Shown: positions 1,073-22,160 of the stretch, in pieces
How positions within the stretch are numbered: position 1 is the stretch's first letter
Layout: each line of letters starts with the position of its first letter
Made by a program: the position numbers and the translations under genes
Notes under the pieces: model-generated
Told to the model about the DNA's origin: nothing
The model's input: the letters and a program-made list of their open reading frames with translations, nothing else
The model's database searches: none
Origin: an uncultured Burkholderiales bacterium
Lineage (GTDB): Bacteria > Pseudomonadota > Gammaproteobacteria > Burkholderiales > Burkholderiaceae_C
DNA length: 42,164 bases
Direction of reading: 5' to 3'
Assembly: GCA_903876885.1 (NCBI GenBank)
Contig: CAIRBP010000116.1
Coordinates: forward strand, 1 to 42,164

Positions 1073-1111
1073 TATTCTTAAAGAAACTAGCAGTCTTAAT
1101 TCGAGTTTTTG

Positions 1112-2413
1112 ATGCAACTTAGCGTTCATTTGGTTAAGTTACTATTACCTGCGGTGCTATGCCTTTTTATTGCCGGTTGTGGAGGAGGTGGAGGCAGCGG
1201 GGATACAAGTGGAACTCCAACTCCTGGACAGTTAGGTCAAAGTCCCGGTGCTTATACTCCCCCGACGCATCATTCACCGACCCCTTCCACAACCGTTTTA
1301 GGTCATACAACCGGGTACCCAGCTTCACTCAGCCCATCAGACCTTTTGCTTCATTATGGGTTCCCCACGGTAGCGCAGTCCTCTCCTTTAGCTGCCCTAT
1401 ACACCGGGGCTGGCCAAACAATTGTGATCATTGATGGCCCTGGAGCTTCTAATCAGACCATTATTAGTGATTTAGCAATTTTTAGTAGTTACTATAACTT
1501 GCCAGCTTGTAATCTTCAGATCATCGATCAAAGTGGTAGTGCTACATCTGACTCAGGCTACCAAGAGATTGCATTGGATGTTCAGTGGGCTCACGCAATT
1601 GCTCCGGATGCGAAGATTGTGTTGATTAAGACGGCTGATAATTACCTGGATAGTGTCATGACAGCACTTCAATCCGCAGTTCAATTGCCAAATGTAGCTG
1701 TTGTTTCTATGAGCTTTGGCGCTACCGAGTTTTCTGATCAAACCTCTAGTATGTATGATGGTTTTTTTAGTCACTATCCAGGCATTGCTTTTGTCGCCTC
1801 CTCTGGAGACAACGGAGGAGGTCTTTTGGGACAAAACTATCCAGCTGCCTCTCCCTATGTGACAGCTGTTGGTGGCACAACTATCACAGGGATTTCCGCA
1901 CCTTCCTCAAACAATATGTCTGAGACCTCTTGGTATTACGGTGGAGGTGGCCCAAGCGTTTTTGAGTCCATGCCGTCATATCAAACCAACTATATGAATT
2001 TAACCCATGACGCAGTGTTAATCGCCAACAACGGTAAGAGGGCAGTGCCAGACGTTGCTTACAACGCTGACCCTCAAGCTAGTCCGGTAGCTGTCGTAAT
2101 TAAGGGTGTGTGGAGCTTCTTTGGCGGAACCAGTGCGGGGGCTCCACAGTGGGCTGGAATTCTTGCAGGTCTTGCTCAGTATTTAACTATTAATGGGTAC
2201 AGCTATTCTGGACTTTTGACCCAAGCCGGAGGTTTAAACAGCATTTTGTATAAGCTAGCTATTAATAAACCCAACAGTTTTTATAACGTTGCGACTGGAT
2301 CTGATGGAAACTGCAGCCTGTGTTATGCAACTGTTGGCTATAACGACGTGACTGGGCTAGGCGTGCCTCTCGTTAGTAACTTCTATGCTAATTTCCCCAA
2401 TTACGCTCATTAA
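1112..2413 (+). CDS. S53 (sedolisin-like) serine-carboxyl peptidase, lipoprotein
   Basis: Predicted surface or periplasmic endopeptidase of the sedolisin/kumamolisin family. Numbered from the ATG at 1112 (a TTG one codon earlier is possible), a lipobox FIAGC places lipidation at C23, followed by a Gly run and a Pro/Thr/Ser-rich linker to about residue 65. Family motifs are in order: GYQEIALD with the Glu-Asp pair E152/D156, SSGDNGG with the oxyanion Asp D233, and GGTSAGAPQWAG with nucleophile S341. The end has YNDVTGLGVP, the usual C-terminal calcium-site region. Oddities: the large propeptide of about 180 residues typical of S53 zymogens is absent, and the first calcium Asp appears to be Asn (N392). 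All catalytic residues are present, so activity is plausible. Confidence 0.85.
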   Translation: MQLSVHLVKLLLPAVLCLFIAGCGGGGGSGDTSGTPTPGQLGQSPGAYTPPTHHSPTPSTTVLGHTTGYPASLSPSDLLLHYGFPTVAQSSPLAALYTGAGQTIVIIDGPGASNQTIISDLAIFSSYYNLPACNLQIIDQSGSATSDSGYQEIALDVQWAHAIAPDAKIVLIKTADNYLDSVMTALQSAVQLPNVAVVSMSFGATEFSDQTSSMYDGFFSHYPGIAFVASSGDNGGGLLGQNYPAASPYVTAVGGTTITGISAPSSNNMSETSWYYGGGGPSVFESMPSYQTNYMNLTHDAVLIANNGKRAVPDVAYNADPQASPVAVVIKGVWSFFGGTSAGAPQWAGILAGLAQYLTINGYSYSGLLTQAGGLNSILYKLAINKPNSFYNVATGSDGNCSLCYATVGYNDVTGLGVPLVSNFYANFPNYAH

Positions 2414-2430: not shown

Positions 2431-4146
2431 TTAAGCTGATGGCTTAACAATTAAATCATTATCGTCAATTGAGAGTCCTTTGAAAATAGCATTTGTAAAT
2501 GATTGACAGACTTTATGTAATAGTCTGTTTGGAACCCCTTTAACGTAGGGGAGATAATACTGTGTTGTTAACACTGGCTTTTGATCAAGCAAGTTAACTT
2601 CAAAACTTAGTGAATTAATTTTTGAATTTAAAGTCTCTTTAAGAGTTGATACGTCATCAATTGACGCCCAATCATTTGCCTTACAGACTGCCTTTAAGAT
2701 TATTGATTTTGAGCTTGGCTCGATAAGAATATTGAGTGGGAACTCAAACCCTCCTAAGACTGTGATCTCTGTGGGAGAAATAGTGCGACAGATAAATCCT
2801 TTTTTCGAGAAGAATTGATTTATCAAAGAGGCTCTTAATTCAATGGGCTTCCAAACCGTTAGATTCGTGTCCTCAATTTGACATCGCGTCTCCTCGACCA
2901 ACTCCAAAATATGAGCAGCAGCAGTAGGCGCAGTTATTCGCTCCATCTTAAAGTGGTCAATGAGCAGATACGTCAGAATATTTGCGATTTCGTCAAAGGT
3001 TCCAATGCTCACTCGCATATTAGGGGGAGCCGTTTGTATGATTGGATTGGTATGTGAAATTCTTTCCTTTGGAAATACATAAGACATAAAGTTAATTTGG
3101 TCTGAGATCAAATTATCAATATTTGCATTAAACAAGTAATGACGTGTCTCTTTTTTCTCTACAACTAAAGCGTGAAATTCAGTAATGATATCTGCTGTCA
3201 GTTTTTTAGGATCACCGTAAGTTATCAAATAATCTAGGAAAGACAGCTTATTTTTCCTGGGGGCTATACTTTTTGAGGGTGTAACATTTGAATTTTGTGG
3301 TTGGAGCGAAGAGGTAGTTGTCGCGGTAATGGAGTTCGAGACATTAGCCCCACTTGTATTATTAACTTTGGTTGAGTTCTTTGAACTCGTGTCTTGCACC
3401 AGGAGAGTGCTTTCAGCGCCCAGGGCGGCATCAATTACGTTCCCGTTGGTGACTTTAAGACCCCTAAGTCTGAGTTGAGCATTAACTTGATCGATGACAG
3501 ATTTACCAAGATCTGTTGAATCCAAAAAGTGTATGAAACTCTCAATTAATGGCTGGCTGACAACTGCACTAGATCCTGGACTCATACTTACAAAATTTCG
3601 CATTGATAGCGAATCATTTAGTGTTTCTTCTAGGTTTTGTAAATTCAAACTGAACCAATGTCTAACCAAATAAATTCTTATTAGTTCGCTTAATTCCGGT
3701 GTACTCGTATTTTTCTTGAATTTTATATATTTCGGTTCAACAAGAGCCTTCAGTTCATCCCAAGATATTGATAAATCCATCCTTTGAAGAAAAGATCCTC
3801 TTTGTGTTGTTTTTGATAATTGAGCTAAGGGTTTGTTATCGGAACTAGGATTTGAATTATTTATTTTTTCAATTTCAGCTAGTAACTCTAACCCCCTATT
3901 CTCTAAAATACTAGCATTAGTCCTATATGTATGGAGATCTTTTAGTATGTTGTTTTTCTTTAAAGAAAGCTCTTGAAGTTCCAAATTAATTTCACTAAGA
4001 TTATTTTGTAAAAATTCAATCTTGGTATTTATTTCTAGTTTGGAACTATTTAGAGAGTTTAATTCTCCAGACAACGTTAAAAGCTTTTTCTTGGAGCTAT
4101 CAAGAGATTGATTTTGTTGAGTTTTTGAATGCTTCGTTTCTGACAT
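2431..4146 (-). CDS. Coiled coil - IS5 transposase N-domain - YbjN-like fusion protein
   Basis: A 571-residue protein of unusual build. Residues 15-98 are a heptad-rich coiled coil. Residues about 113-248 match the N-terminal (DUF772) domain of IS5-family transposases: KTTQRGSFL, ISWDELKALVEPKY, LIRIYLVRHWFSL, DSLSMRNFV, TDLGKSVIDQVNAQL, RGLKV, and VIDA, where D239 is at the first DDE catalytic position. After that the similarity stops: I find no second Asp motif and no GDKGY-like or late Glu motif. Residues 250-298 are a Ser/Thr/Asn-rich linker; 300-430 are unrecognised. Residues about 430-565 resemble YbjN/type-III-chaperone-like domains, a low-homology call. This reads as a domesticated transposase DNA-binding region rather than an active element. 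It is convergent with the peptidase gene, 17 bases away. Function unknown. Confidence 0.75.
   Translation of the reverse strand: MSETKHSKTQQNQSLDSSKKKLLTLSGELNSLNSSKLEINTKIEFLQNNLSEINLELQELSLKKNNILKDLHTYRTNASILENRGLELLAEIEKINNSNPSSDNKPLAQLSKTTQRGSFLQRMDLSISWDELKALVEPKYIKFKKNTSTPELSELIRIYLVRHWFSLNLQNLEETLNDSLSMRNFVSMSPGSSAVVSQPLIESFIHFLDSTDLGKSVIDQVNAQLRLRGLKVTNGNVIDAALGAESTLLVQDTSSKNSTKVNNTSGANVSNSITATTTSSLQPQNSNVTPSKSIAPRKNKLSFLDYLITYGDPKKLTADIITEFHALVVEKKETRHYLFNANIDNLISDQINFMSYVFPKERISHTNPIIQTAPPNMRVSIGTFDEIANILTYLLIDHFKMERITAPTAAAHILELVEETRCQIEDTNLTVWKPIELRASLINQFFSKKGFICRTISPTEITVLGGFEFPLNILIEPSSKSIILKAVCKANDWASIDDVSTLKETLNSKINSLSFEVNLLDQKPVLTTQYYLPYVKGVPNRLLHKVCQSFTNAIFKGLSIDDNDLIVKPSA
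3400..3810 (-). other. IS5-family transposase-derived domain inside a host gene
   Basis: This stretch encodes residues about 113-249 of the fusion protein and is the part homologous to IS5-type transposases. In those enzymes it lies ahead of, and runs into, the first strand of the RNase H-like catalytic domain. The reading frame is intact across it, with no frameshift or stop, which argues for retention under selection. I see no terminal inverted repeats or target-site duplication around it. Confidence 0.7.
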
Positions 4147-4451
4147 AGGAGCATTTTAAAAATTGTAATGGCTAGGCTGATGGTTTTAAGGGTTTTATAA
4201 ACCTATATCAAATTCTATCTTTAGGGCTTCAATTAATATTTTGACTGGGAATGGTTTTAATTATAATTAATGCTTCTTGTTTTTTTTGATGTATATCAAG
4301 TTCCTTTGATTTTAATTAATCTAATCTTGTTGTAGTTGGTGGAATTCTATGAGCATTGATTGCACGATATTCATGCCCGTGAGAGTTAAATATGAGCCAA
4401 GTTCGATGACAAAATATAATATATTTATAATAAAAAATTATTCAACTTAGT
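4147..4451. other. AT-rich intergenic region, 305 bp, with palindromes
   Basis: No convincing gene. The region is strongly AT-rich and holds a perfect 14-bp palindrome TTAATTATAATTAA at 4257-4270, a small inverted repeat GGTTT-TAT-AAACC at 4191-4203, and the run TATAATATATTTATAATA near 4410. It must contain the promoter of the minus-strand fusion gene starting at 4146 and the end of the minus-strand operon finishing at 4452. Such AT-rich DNA is a typical target for H-NS/MvaT-type or IHF-type binding, which is inference. Confidence 0.5.
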
Positions 4452-4664
4452 TCAAGACGCTAACAATTCCCAAGATTCACAGGCATTATCAGCTTTGACA
4501 ATGGGAAAATTTTCCATCCTTTGGAATTTTCTCATCAAAGGGCTTGATTTAAAGTAATTTAAGCCGCATCTCAATTTGGTTTGTGCGGTCTCCGAGGGCA
4601 TTACATATTTACACAGTTGGCACTGTGGATTCTGAGCATTGGGTAGTGTTTTATTTTTTATCAT
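4452..4664 (-). CDS. Small Cys4 protein, putative metal-binding
   Basis: A 70-residue protein that I cannot assign to a named family. It has four cysteines, C15-x2-C18, C33 and C62, in a CxxC...C...C layout that suits a zinc or iron-sulfur site, and aromatic and Met residues between them. There is no signal peptide or membrane segment, so it should be cytosolic. The start codon lies one base after the stop of the upstream leaderless ModA-like gene, so the two are almost certainly co-transcribed and translationally coupled, which suggests a shared task. Confidence 0.6.
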   Translation of the reverse strand: MIKNKTLPNAQNPQCQLCKYVMPSETAQTKLRCGLNYFKSSPLMRKFQRMENFPIVKADNACESWELLAS

Positions 4665-4665
4665 T

Positions 4666-5418
4666 TTAAGATATGGGTTCCAAACCTCTATCAGATAGGA
4701 TTAATCTCGCCTCTTTTGATTGCATGACCTTAAAAAACTTTTCAACAGTGATTGATTTTTTTGAGTAAAAGCTAGTGCCGCCCGAGAAAGTCGTAATTCG
4801 TTGTATATCGTTAGGAAGTGGACCAACTATCTCAATATTTTGAACAGAGGAGAGTTCGCTTATATTTTGCAACGCGAAGATGACTTGATCTTTTATGATT
4901 AACTCTGCAGCCAAGCCACCTTTAACAAGTTTTGTTTTTCCTGATAGTTCTTTAGTCATATTAAATTCCTCTATCAACTTGCCTATATAAATACCGCTCA
5001 CCCCGTCCGAGGTATAGGCGAGCGAAGGCGCGTCTTTAAGGAATTTTTTGAATTTTTCAACTGTACTAATGTCTGGCTTGTTATGCCCTAATTTCATGCC
5101 AACACCAATGCCGGTTTTAGCTAAGTCAAATCGAGGTTCTTTAAGTCTTTTTGCATTAATCAAGTTAACTATAGCTTCCTTAGTTAAGATCAGTGCATCG
5201 ATATCGTTATCTTTTTCAAAAACATCTAAAAGTTCAGTTGTCGGTCCGAAGCGGAAATTAATAGCGAACACACTAAGTTCACTGTGATCATTAGTAATTT
5301 TAAGGATCGCTGATTTTAAGGCTGTTGAACAAAGTATTTTCAAAGATCTAGATTGGATCGATGAATCACTTGTCGCAAAAGGTATGTGAACCATTTTTTG
5401 AATGGGTTTTGTCTTCAA
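4666..5418 (-). CDS. ModA-like periplasmic-binding-fold protein lacking a signal peptide
   Basis: The 250-residue product has the type 2 periplasmic-binding fold of the molybdate-binding ModA family: LKILCSTALKSAI near residue 30, then ALILTKEAI, GIGVGMKLGH, SLAYTSDGVSGIYIGKL, and GPLPNDIQ near residue 203. The fold starts directly at about residue 26 after a polar segment, and neither the TTG start used here nor ATG 5394 gives a signal peptide. It is therefore predicted to be cytosolic, unlike transport ModA. No permease or ATPase lies nearby. It sits 34 bases behind the NHL gene and 1 base ahead of the Cys4 gene. Two relatives lie at 16709 and 21396. The ligand is unknown; calling it a molybdate importer would be misleading. 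Confidence 0.72.
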   Translation of the reverse strand: MKTKPIQKMVHIPFATSDSSIQSRSLKILCSTALKSAILKITNDHSELSVFAINFRFGPTTELLDVFEKDNDIDALILTKEAIVNLINAKRLKEPRFDLAKTGIGVGMKLGHNKPDISTVEKFKKFLKDAPSLAYTSDGVSGIYIGKLIEEFNMTKELSGKTKLVKGGLAAELIIKDQVIFALQNISELSSVQNIEIVGPLPNDIQRITTFSGGTSFYSKKSITVEKFFKVMQSKEARLILSDRGLEPIS

Positions 5419-16708: not shown

Positions 16709-17470
16709 TTAGTAGGGCTCAAGTCCATGAGCTCGCATATCTGCCGACCCACGTGCCGATTTAAGCCATTGAATTAATTCCTGCACCACGGGCGTGGACG
16801 GGCTTGAAGTCGGTATTGAACTTGGGATTGCAAAGGCAAATGTAGTTATGTACTGCACGTCCTCTGGCAAAGGACCCACAAAGTCGATTTCCGGGACACT
16901 CAAAATCTCAGGAATTTGTTGAAAGGCGATTTCTACCTCACCTCTTTTAACGGCGTTACCAACGGGTTCACCTTGAATCACTTTGGTTTTAGATTTAATT
17001 TGCTCGCTAACTCCCATTTGCTCAAAAAGAGAAGCTAAGTAAGCTCCACTAGGCCCTGTGGAATAAGCTAGAGACTTAGTTGTAATCAAAAGATTATGTA
17101 AATCTTCCTTGTTCCTGACAACCGGACGAGTTGCCCCTTTCGCAACTCCAATCCCAATCCCAGAACTTACATAGTTCACTTTGCTTGCAGCTTTTAGCTT
17201 GCCCTGGGCAATCAAAGAATCGATACTTTTGCTATCTATTATGACCAAATCACCCGCATCCTCTGCTTTAATATGCTTCACAATTTCAACGGTAGGTAGC
17301 CACGTTGTCGTAATCACGTGGCCTTTCTTTTCAAACTCGGCTGCCATTTTGAGGTATGGCTCTTTAAAAGCCACTGAGGACATGACCTTAATTTCATCTG
17401 CCTGTACATTTAGAGCACTGATCATGATAGTGAGAGCCGTAAGAGAGTGGTTGAGCAAAATTTTATTCAT
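16709..17470 (-). CDS. ModA-like solute-binding protein with signal peptide
   Basis: Type 2 periplasmic-binding protein of the ModA-like group; about 253 residues from ATG 17470 (TTG 17485 is the longer option). The leader MNKILLNHSLTALTIMISA ends near VQA-DEI, so this member is exported. Group features are IKVMSSVAFKEPYLKMAAEF, DLVIIDSKSIDSLIAQGKL, SGIGIGVAKGATRP, LAYSTGPSGAYLASLF and GPLPEDVQYITTF. The same landmarks (GIGxGV, AYxTGPSG, GPLPxDxQ) occur in the products at 4666 and 21396, so the three are related. There is no ModB or ModC gene. It follows the MFS gene by 26 bases and may be co-transcribed; the ligand is unknown. Confidence 0.8.
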   Translation of the reverse strand: MNKILLNHSLTALTIMISALNVQADEIKVMSSVAFKEPYLKMAAEFEKKGHVITTTWLPTVEIVKHIKAEDAGDLVIIDSKSIDSLIAQGKLKAASKVNYVSSGIGIGVAKGATRPVVRNKEDLHNLLITTKSLAYSTGPSGAYLASLFEQMGVSEQIKSKTKVIQGEPVGNAVKRGEVEIAFQQIPEILSVPEIDFVGPLPEDVQYITTFAFAIPSSIPTSSPSTPVVQELIQWLKSARGSADMRAHGLEPY

Positions 17471-17496
17471 ATATTTTTGAACCAATTTATGAGTTT

Positions 17497-21395: not shown

Positions 21396-22160
21396 TTGTC
21401 ATGTGAAATTCTAGAGGATAATGATTTTTTAAATTTAAATACAAGCAAAATGACAACTCCTAGTAAGAGTGCTGTACATCAGAGCATAAAGGGTTGGGCT
21501 TCCATCGCCCTTGGACCTGCAATACAAATTGTTCACGAGTTTGAGGCTCAAACTGGCATTACAGTCCAATTTGAGCTTCTCCCATCGGCTGATATTACCG
21601 TCAATTTAGGCAAGGGACTCTCAACTGACTTTGTTTTTTATCCTACGAAGCCAATTAAACACTTCATCAACGAAGGAATACTTAGCTCAGATTCTTTCAC
21701 ACCAGTTGTGGAGTCTGGGATTGGAATTACCGTTCCTATGAATTCGAAATTAAAAGCGCCACAAAATGCTAATGAACTCAAAGATATTTTGCTGAATGTT
21801 AACTCTATCATTTACGCAACGGGCCCTAGCGGAGACCATATTGAACATGTCCTCAATCAGCTCGAAATAAAGGATGTAGTTAAAAATAAAATTAAAATTA
21901 TTTCGGGGCTAGTCGCCAAGGGAATTGAGGAGGGAATGGGGGACATTGGTTTTCAACAAATTCCTGAAATTTTATTAGTACCAGGTGCGAAACTACTTTG
22001 TCCCCTTCCTAATGATATTCAATTAAAGACACCATTTTCATTGAGTATTCACCGCTCATCCTCCCGTATTCAGGAGTGTAAAGATTTATTTAAGTATCTA
22101 AGTGATCAAAAATATAAAGATCTTTATGCAAAATATGGTTTGCAGATGTTTGATTATTGA
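21396..22160 (+). CDS. ModA-like binding-fold protein lacking a signal peptide
   Basis: Related to the products at 4666 and 16709: SIKGWASIALGPAIQIVHEF, DFVFYPTKPIKHFI, SGIGITVPMNSK, IIYATGPSGDHIEHVL, GFQQIPEILLVPGAK and CPLPNDIQ are in the same order. From either start (TTG 21396 or ATG 21450) the N-terminus is polar, so the protein should stay in the cytosol. Only 5 bases separate its stop from the ATG of the ThDP enzyme, so the two are coupled. There is no ABC permease or ATPase near. A cytosolic ligand-binding or accessory role for the enzyme is possible but is inference. Confidence 0.72.
   Translation: MSCEILEDNDFLNLNTSKMTTPSKSAVHQSIKGWASIALGPAIQIVHEFEAQTGITVQFELLPSADITVNLGKGLSTDFVFYPTKPIKHFINEGILSSDSFTPVVESGIGITVPMNSKLKAPQNANELKDILLNVNSIIYATGPSGDHIEHVLNQLEIKDVVKNKIKIISGLVAKGIEEGMGDIGFQQIPEILLVPGAKLLCPLPNDIQLKTPFSLSIHRSSSRIQECKDLFKYLSDQKYKDLYAKYGLQMFDY

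What the first reader, a model, noticed from the sequence alone, without database searches (positions are those of the whole stretch)
2431..4146. Domesticated IS5 transposase domain fused to a coiled coil and a YbjN-like tail
Seen: residues about 113-248 carry a continuous series of IS5-transposase N-domain signatures (ISWDELKALVEPKY, LIRIYLVRHWFSL, DSLSMRNFV, TDLGKSV, RGLKV, VIDA), but everything after the first catalytic Asp is replaced by a Ser/Thr/Asn linker and an unrelated C-terminal half resembling YbjN. An 80-residue coiled coil is added in front. The frame is intact over 571 codons. Known: the DUF772 region of IS5 enzymes lies ahead of the DDE core and is thought to take part in DNA or partner binding. 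Inference: a DNA-binding or oligomerising module captured by the host, perhaps a nucleoid or regulatory protein. I know of no described family with this build.
Basis: partly seen in the sequence, partly recalled or inferred. Interest (0 to 1): 0.8.

Follow-up and report, generated by a model that had tools for sequence, protein, structure and literature searches.

The report
Transposase fragment captured by globin-like protein
Some uncultured Burkholderiales bacteria carry an intact protein in which the front end of a jumping-gene enzyme is joined to a globin-like, apparently haem-less host protein, a bacterial case of a kind of gene invention better known from animals.

Summary
Window 2431-4146 (minus strand) is one intact 571-codon gene. 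Residues 113-242 are a genuine IS5-transposase N-terminal domain, cut just after the first catalytic Asp, behind a long coiled coil. The C-terminal half is more than 'YbjN-like': residues about 303-426 are truncated-globin-like but lack the haem-binding proximal His; only about 432-571 are (weakly) YbjN-like. C-half sequence occurs in 52 of 84 genomes of the genus, mostly without the IS5 part. The full fusion occurs at 6 loci in 5 of 84 genomes, forms one clade in trees of either half, and is under purifying selection in the one pair where this is well measurable. No further fusion showed in 399 genomes of the family. Fold-forming residues of the IS5 domain are kept; the IS5-invariant GRxP motif and R205 are lost in 6 of 6. 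Best reading: a homo-oligomeric sensor/adaptor whose captured transposase module is kept for assembly or docking, not transposition. DNA binding is possible but not shown. I rate it a new variant of a known kind of event (transposase-domain capture); my paper searches listed no bacterial case like it.

The parts
2431..4146 (-). whole gene, 571 codons, ATG start to stop
3853..4140 (-). coiled coil, residues 3-98
   Evidence: AF2 helix 3-98; heptad test
3421..3810 (-). captured IS5 transposase N-domain (DUF772), residues 113-242
3430..3432 (-). codon of D239, equivalent of the first catalytic Asp of IS5 (kept in 5 of 6 fusions; N in G049)
   Evidence: that this Asp is the first catalytic one is recalled
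3253..3420 (-). Ser/Thr/Asn-rich linker, residues 243-298, variable in length among relatives
   Evidence: least constrained part
2869..3240 (-). group-1 truncated-globin-like domain without proximal His, residues about 303-426
3025..3027 (-). codon of P374, aligned to the proximal (F8) His of truncated haemoglobins
   Evidence: alignment; 0 of 33 family members have His there
2434..2853 (-). YbjN-like domain, residues about 432-571
   Evidence: (low-confidence model)
4666..5418 (-). neighbour: small substrate-binding-like protein (by reading), next to the fusion in 4 of 4 subfamily-A loci
1109..2413 (+). neighbour: sedolisin-like protein (name recalled), next to the fusion in 3 of 4 subfamily-A loci

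Best explanation
A domesticated host protein made by a single capture of the N-terminal domain of an IS5-type transposase. SHOWN by sequence: order coiled coil - IS5 N-domain - linker - haem-less truncated-globin-like domain - YbjN-like domain (the last one weakly); one clade, i.e. most simply one origin; two subfamilies (A, B), both in the window's genome. INFERRED: the protein is cytoplasmic and homo-oligomeric, held together by the coiled coil and perhaps by the YbjN-like domain (AmyR, a YbjN protein, is a dimer). The globin+YbjN half, which also exists alone and is probably the older protein, does the sensing or partner binding. The IS5 module is kept for its fold, as an assembly/docking surface that positions this half on itself, on a partner or on DNA. 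It should be unable to transpose: the rest of the catalytic core is missing.
For: IS5 N-domain; model from 44 rows with IS5 blocks at pLDDT 66-92, seven helices then two strands ending at D239. Globin: profile of 33 members against PDB gives 22 matches up to E 5, of which ranks 1-19 are globins, best E 9.7e-11; profile-profile with true truncated globins 99.3%, E 2e-20, against 0.4% for both cross-controls. Proximal His absent in 33 of 33. YbjN: 87.5%, E 3.6e-6. One clade: 100/100 for the C-half, 97/98 for the IS5 part. dN/dS for G054/G031: coil 0.09, IS5 0.18, linker 0.34, globin 0.04, YbjN 0.11. Of 51 IS5-conserved positions 22 are kept in at least 5 of 6 fusions, 15 lost in all 6. AmyR dimer and action of YbjN proteins through partners: PMC5398634 (passages).
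Against: No function was measured, and no neighbour gene is shared by all 17 stretches compared. The C-half model was poor (mean pLDDT 41.5, 3 rows), so its folds rest on profiles. The YbjN link is weak: the PDB search hit no YbjN-named entry although AmyR has a solved structure, 30 of 33 members have no Pfam YbjN match, and neither the YbjN nor the Bac_globin model rings in the window's genome. Foldseek found no significant PDB match for the N-half and the IS5 profile no PDB sequence, so the domain's job in IS5 itself is not known from structure. The IS5 tree carries long-branch warnings. The window copy is the most diverged (IS5 part 40-44% identical to two orthologues; end branch 1.55), so its IS5 domain may be drifting. 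Only 5 of 84 genomes, many incomplete, show the fusion.
Confidence: 0.5

Rival explanations
1. DNA-binding regulator or nucleoid protein: the IS5 module binds DNA and brings the globin/YbjN sensor to promoters.
For: The domain lies ahead of the catalytic core in transposases, and R157 and R183 are kept in 6 of 6 fusions. Some stand-alone relatives lie near genes that by reading look like histidine-kinase and response-regulator genes (L043, L044; L086; L048 about 4 kb away).
Against: GRxP (146, 147, 149) and R205, in 23 of 23 IS5s, are lost in all 6, though GRxP lies beside an alignment gap. Net charge does not discriminate: -4 to +1 in fusions, -6 to +3 in IS5s. No significant PDB match; a Tc3 transposase DNA-binding domain appears only at rank 16 with E 1.9.
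Confidence: 0.3
2. A tame inhibitor of IS5 elements: the N-domain mixes with active IS5 transposase or occupies its ends and silences it.
For: Truncated transposases that inhibit their parent are known (recalled). None of the 5 fusion-bearing genomes shows another IS5 N-domain.
Against: Only 5 of the other 79 genus genomes show one (G009, G010, G026, G030, G081; hand count of listed rows), so absence says little. The IS5 parts are only 25-37% identical to the 24 IS5s compared, which makes mixing with such elements unlikely.
Confidence: 0.1
3. A chance recombinant, pseudogene or assembly chimera.
For: The window copy is diverged and below Pfam's DUF772 cut-off.
Against: Six loci in five assemblies, same order, no internal stops, one clade, purifying selection in the measurable pair, shared neighbours.
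Confidence: 0.03

Closest known systems
IS5 family transposases (NF033581; Pfam DUF772 PF05598)
   Same: N-terminal domain, residues 113-242, up to the first catalytic Asp motif
   Different: no further catalytic core, GRxP motif lost, coiled coil in front, globin/YbjN behind
Group-1 truncated haemoglobins (Bac_globin PF01152; e.g. PDB 3aq5)
   Same: globin profile over the domain
   Different: proximal His replaced (Pro 25, Ile 5, Ser 2, Asn 1 of 33), so presumably no haem
YbjN family (PF10722; AmyR)
   Same: collinear profile match; predicted helix-4 strands-helix-2 strands-helix (low confidence)
   Different: very remote; here behind a globin-like domain
Non-haem globin sensors such as RsbR of the stressosome
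   Same: a globin fold without haem used for sensing (recalled; only lists papers that hold the terms)
   Different: no sequence relation tested
Host-transposase fusions by transposase capture in animals (reviews PMC8700633, PMC10027918; search listing only)
   Same: part of a transposase joined in frame to a host protein and kept
   Different: bacterial, IS5, and the host part is a globin+YbjN protein

Membership tests
IS5 family transposase | IS5/DUF772 N-terminal domain | tested here: met
   NF033581 E 4.3e-14, below its whole-protein cut-off; DUF772 over cut-off in 5 of 6 fusions, window copy below it
IS5 family transposase | complete DDE catalytic core | tested here: not met
   plasmid matches end at residue 242 in 19 of 20 listed rows and at 246 in one; only the first Asp remains (D239; 5 of 6 fusions)
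IS5 family transposase | element with terminal inverted repeats | not tested
   no search for repeats flanking the gene was made
Group-1 truncated haemoglobin | truncated-globin sequence profile | tested here: met
   PDB ranks 1-19 of 22, best E 9.7e-11; hhalign 99.3%. But single members give at best E 0.0015, 19.1 bits, below Pfam's cut-off of 21
Group-1 truncated haemoglobin | proximal (F8) histidine for haem | tested here: not met
   0 of 33
YbjN | YbjN profile match | tested here: inconclusive
   3 of 33 members at E up to 1, best 0.0026; hhalign 87.5%; window copy no hit; no YbjN-named PDB hit
YbjN | class-I type III chaperone-like dimeric fold | tested here: inconclusive
   secondary structure order fits the family picture but pLDDT is low
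Host-transposase fusion (transposase capture) | recurrent in-frame fusion of single origin, kept by purifying selection | tested here: met
   (one pair well measurable)
Host-transposase fusion (transposase capture) | captured part still works as DNA-binding module | not testable with these tools
   needs binding assays

The most novel reading that the evidence does not exclude
A bacterial counterpart of the transposase-capture transcription factors of animals: a haem-less globin/YbjN sensor turned into a DNA-docked regulator by acquiring the N-terminal domain of an IS5 transposase, then duplicated into two subfamilies.
Probability: 0.3. Interest if true: 0.85.

Novelty: new variant of a known kind. 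Interest (0 to 1): 0.6.

Why it matters
Domestication of transposase parts is well charted in eukaryotes, but capture of only the N-terminal module of an IS transposase into a bacterial host protein did not turn up in my searches of an open-access library (titles and abstract starts seen). Here relatives in the same genus still carry the partner half alone; in two of them (G049, G054) it sits behind the same three genes as one of the fusions, so before/after comparison and direct biochemistry are possible. It also shows a genus-wide family of globin-like proteins without the haem histidine joined to a YbjN-like domain, which none of the models that I scanned names (Pfam; NCBIfam).

Tried and rejected
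Viral relatives: none confirmed by A1 or A5. Plasmid and phage hits of P0001, in the rows listed (20 each), lie within residues 29-246 and 85-242, never in the C-half; 19 of 20 plasmid rows are annotated as IS5-type transposase, one has no annotation; of the phage rows some are annotated as transposase or mobile element, others as hypothetical protein, baseplate hub or not at all. Structure of the C-half with 3 rows was poor and was not searched. Foldseek with the N-half gave nothing at E <= 0.001, perhaps because the long helix dominates. Coil relatives: mostly coils of SMC-length frames and other coiled-coil models; no match to the neighbour frames. Shared partner gene of the stand-alone family: none common to all; most of the widely shared clusters are overlapping frames, and a kinase-like cluster is shared by 7 of the 36 loci (5 genomes). 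NCBIfam gave one odd weak hit for a stand-alone protein (staphylopine dehydrogenase, E 0.00022, 20.2 of 675 bits), taken as chance. PADLOC: only matches in the coil (best E 0.013). No Rfam hit; promoter and terminator scan at chance level. Rows dropped: one search found 41 frames, 40 long enough; A6 uses 32 of these plus the window (six loci held twice, L017 and L025 left out). A7 uses 24 of 30 IS5 loci; one search leaves out L050 (23 IS5s). A9 uses 41 of 71 viral-contig IS5 loci. A10 and A12 use 24 of the 33 rows. The five globins of A13 had been found with profile A5, so that comparison is not blind; the PDB search is. The family search scored at most 3 candidates per genome.

Full report
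What is there. The gene lies at window 2431-4146 on the minus strand: 571 codons, ATG, no internal stop. The window is contig C116 of a 2.22-Mb genome in 116 contigs, 68% complete; two contigs with the same build in the public collection are titled 'uncultured Burkholderiales bacterium' and equal G054:C31 and G031:C118 by length and match position.

IS5 part. NCBIfam's IS5 transposase model NF033581 matches residues 119-242 at E 4.3e-14, and three further fusions at E 1.9e-17 to 3.3e-20; all stay below its whole-protein cut-off of 140 bits, as expected for a part. DUF772 is weak in the window copy (E 0.0013, below cut-off) but above cut-off in the 5 other fusions (E 1.1e-6 to 2.3e-11). A profile of IS5s alone scores P0001 at 101.3 bits against 4.6 for the best of 500 shuffles. 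tblastn against plasmids reaches its 5000-record limit; of the 20 listed rows 19 are annotated as IS5-type transposase and end at residue 242, one has no annotation and ends at 246. So the module runs from the 'KTTQR' region (TTRR in relatives) to the first catalytic Asp (role recalled) and stops there. No solved structure is recognised by sequence. With 41 IS5 rows from viral contigs AlphaFold gives, for the N-half, mean pLDDT 80.8 and pTM 0.50: one helix over residues 3-98, then seven helices and two strands that lead to D239, IS5 blocks at pLDDT 66-92. Foldseek finds no PDB match with E <= 0.001.

C-terminal half. The own genome carries a second protein of the same build (C85), and the genus many copies of the C-half alone. 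A profile of 33 C-halves against PDB gives 22 matches up to E 5; ranks 1-19 are globins (names as listed; THB1 and THB11 recalled as truncated haemoglobins), best E 9.7e-11, over the first 110 positions. Against five truncated globins of the family and order (Bac_globin E 8.8e-12 or better in the three that I scanned) the profile comparison gives 99.3%, E 2e-20; the swapped controls give 0.4%. The proximal His aligns to P374; 0 of 33 members have His there or within three columns. The rest matches YbjN weakly: three of 33 members hit PF10722 (best E 0.0026), and the profile comparison gives 87.5%, E 3.6e-6; but no YbjN-named PDB entry was hit, and neither Pfam model rings in the window's genome. 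The low-confidence model has the order helix-4 strands-helix-2 strands-helix.

Distribution and origin. P0001 matches 53 of 84 genus genomes; by my hand count of the listing 52 of them have C-half sequence (some cut by contig ends) and one (G030) only IS5. In G000 and G032 the C-half was seen only in fusions. The full fusion is at 6 loci in 5 of 84: window, G000:C85, G031, G032, G049, G054. In 399 family genomes (a few of the genus among them) 143 match; apart from the window's genome the best E of any is 1.6e-39, against 5e-295 for the window gene, and the listed matches outside the genus are IS5 parts only; not all matches are listed. The C-half profile matches 4 of 299 family genomes and 5 of 300 order genomes, own genome included; outside the genus the matches cover the globin part. 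Trees put the six fusions together for the C-half (100/100, 33 rows) and for the IS5 part (97/98, 30 rows, with long-branch warnings): most simply one capture, then duplication into subfamily A (window, G031, G049, G054) and B (G000:C85, G032). At the B locus of the window's genome the fusion follows three genes (69-86% identical) that in G049 and G054 are followed by a stand-alone copy; the other side of the locus differs. These two copies are the best-scoring stand-alone relatives, but the tree does not resolve whether they are sisters of the fusions. In subfamily A the substrate-binding-like neighbour is kept in 4 of 4 loci and the sedolisin-like one in 3 of 4.

Selection. G054/G031 (dS 0.46): dN/dS is about 0.09 coil, 0.18 IS5, 0.34 linker, 0.04 globin, 0.11 YbjN. 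The B pair gives dN 0.10, dS 1.6 for the IS5 part by YN00. In the pairs with the window copy dS is above 1 or not computable, so its own ratio is unknown.

What the IS5 module kept. Of 51 positions conserved in at least 90% of 23 IS5s, 22 are kept in at least 5 of 6 fusions (F119, L120, M123, W129, R157, W164, E173, D178, R183, F185, D239 and others) and 15 are lost in all 6, among them G146, R147, P149, T199, R205 and 245-250. GRxP lies beside an alignment gap. The fold is kept; features that are likely tied to transposition are not (inference). That favours an assembly or docking role; it does not exclude DNA binding.

Mechanism. Shown: architecture, one clade, selection in the measurable pair, loss of the haem ligand and of the catalytic core. 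Inferred: homo-oligomer through coil and YbjN-like domain (AmyR is a dimer and YbjN proteins are thought to act through protein partners: PMC5398634, passages); haem-less globin as sensor or partner-binding domain, as for the non-haem globin of RsbR (recalled; one search lists papers only); IS5 module as docking part.

Prior work. Ten paper searches were made. Those on IS5/DUF772 domestication (29), transposase domestication and capture listed no paper on such a fusion, as judged from titles and abstract starts; globin with YbjN gave no paper. Only PMC5398634 was opened (passages). The library holds open-licence papers only.

Noticed in passing
L041:6999-7811, L043:7574-8416, L044:6889-7704, L046, L047, L048 and others: A genus-wide family of stand-alone, about 270-aa proteins made of a haem-less truncated-globin-like and a YbjN-like domain; some lie near genes that by reading look like histidine-kinase and response-regulator genes (L043, L044, L086).
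   Followed up: partly
L037:7477-8574, L039:5830-6924, L040: A 366-aa variant of the same family with an additional C-terminal part; in L037 and L039 near genes that look like NiFe-hydrogenase genes (name recalled, not scanned).
   Followed up: no
L089:1036-1848: Response-regulator receiver domain fused to a truncated globin with proximal His (Response_reg E 1.1e-13, Bac_globin E 8.8e-12; His).
   Followed up: no
G009 (genus), contigs C33, C50, C53, C72, C138, C144, C161: Seven short IS5 N-terminal stretches in one genome, four of them with TAG stops inside.
   Followed up: no
window 4666-5418, 16709-17485, 21396-22160: Three small substrate-binding-like proteins (by reading) in one window, the first of them kept next to the fusion in other species.
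   Followed up: no
window 4147-4665: A 519-base, AT-rich stretch (GC 0.29-0.33) upstream of the fusion gene; promoter-like matches are at chance level and there is no Rfam hit.
   Followed up: partly
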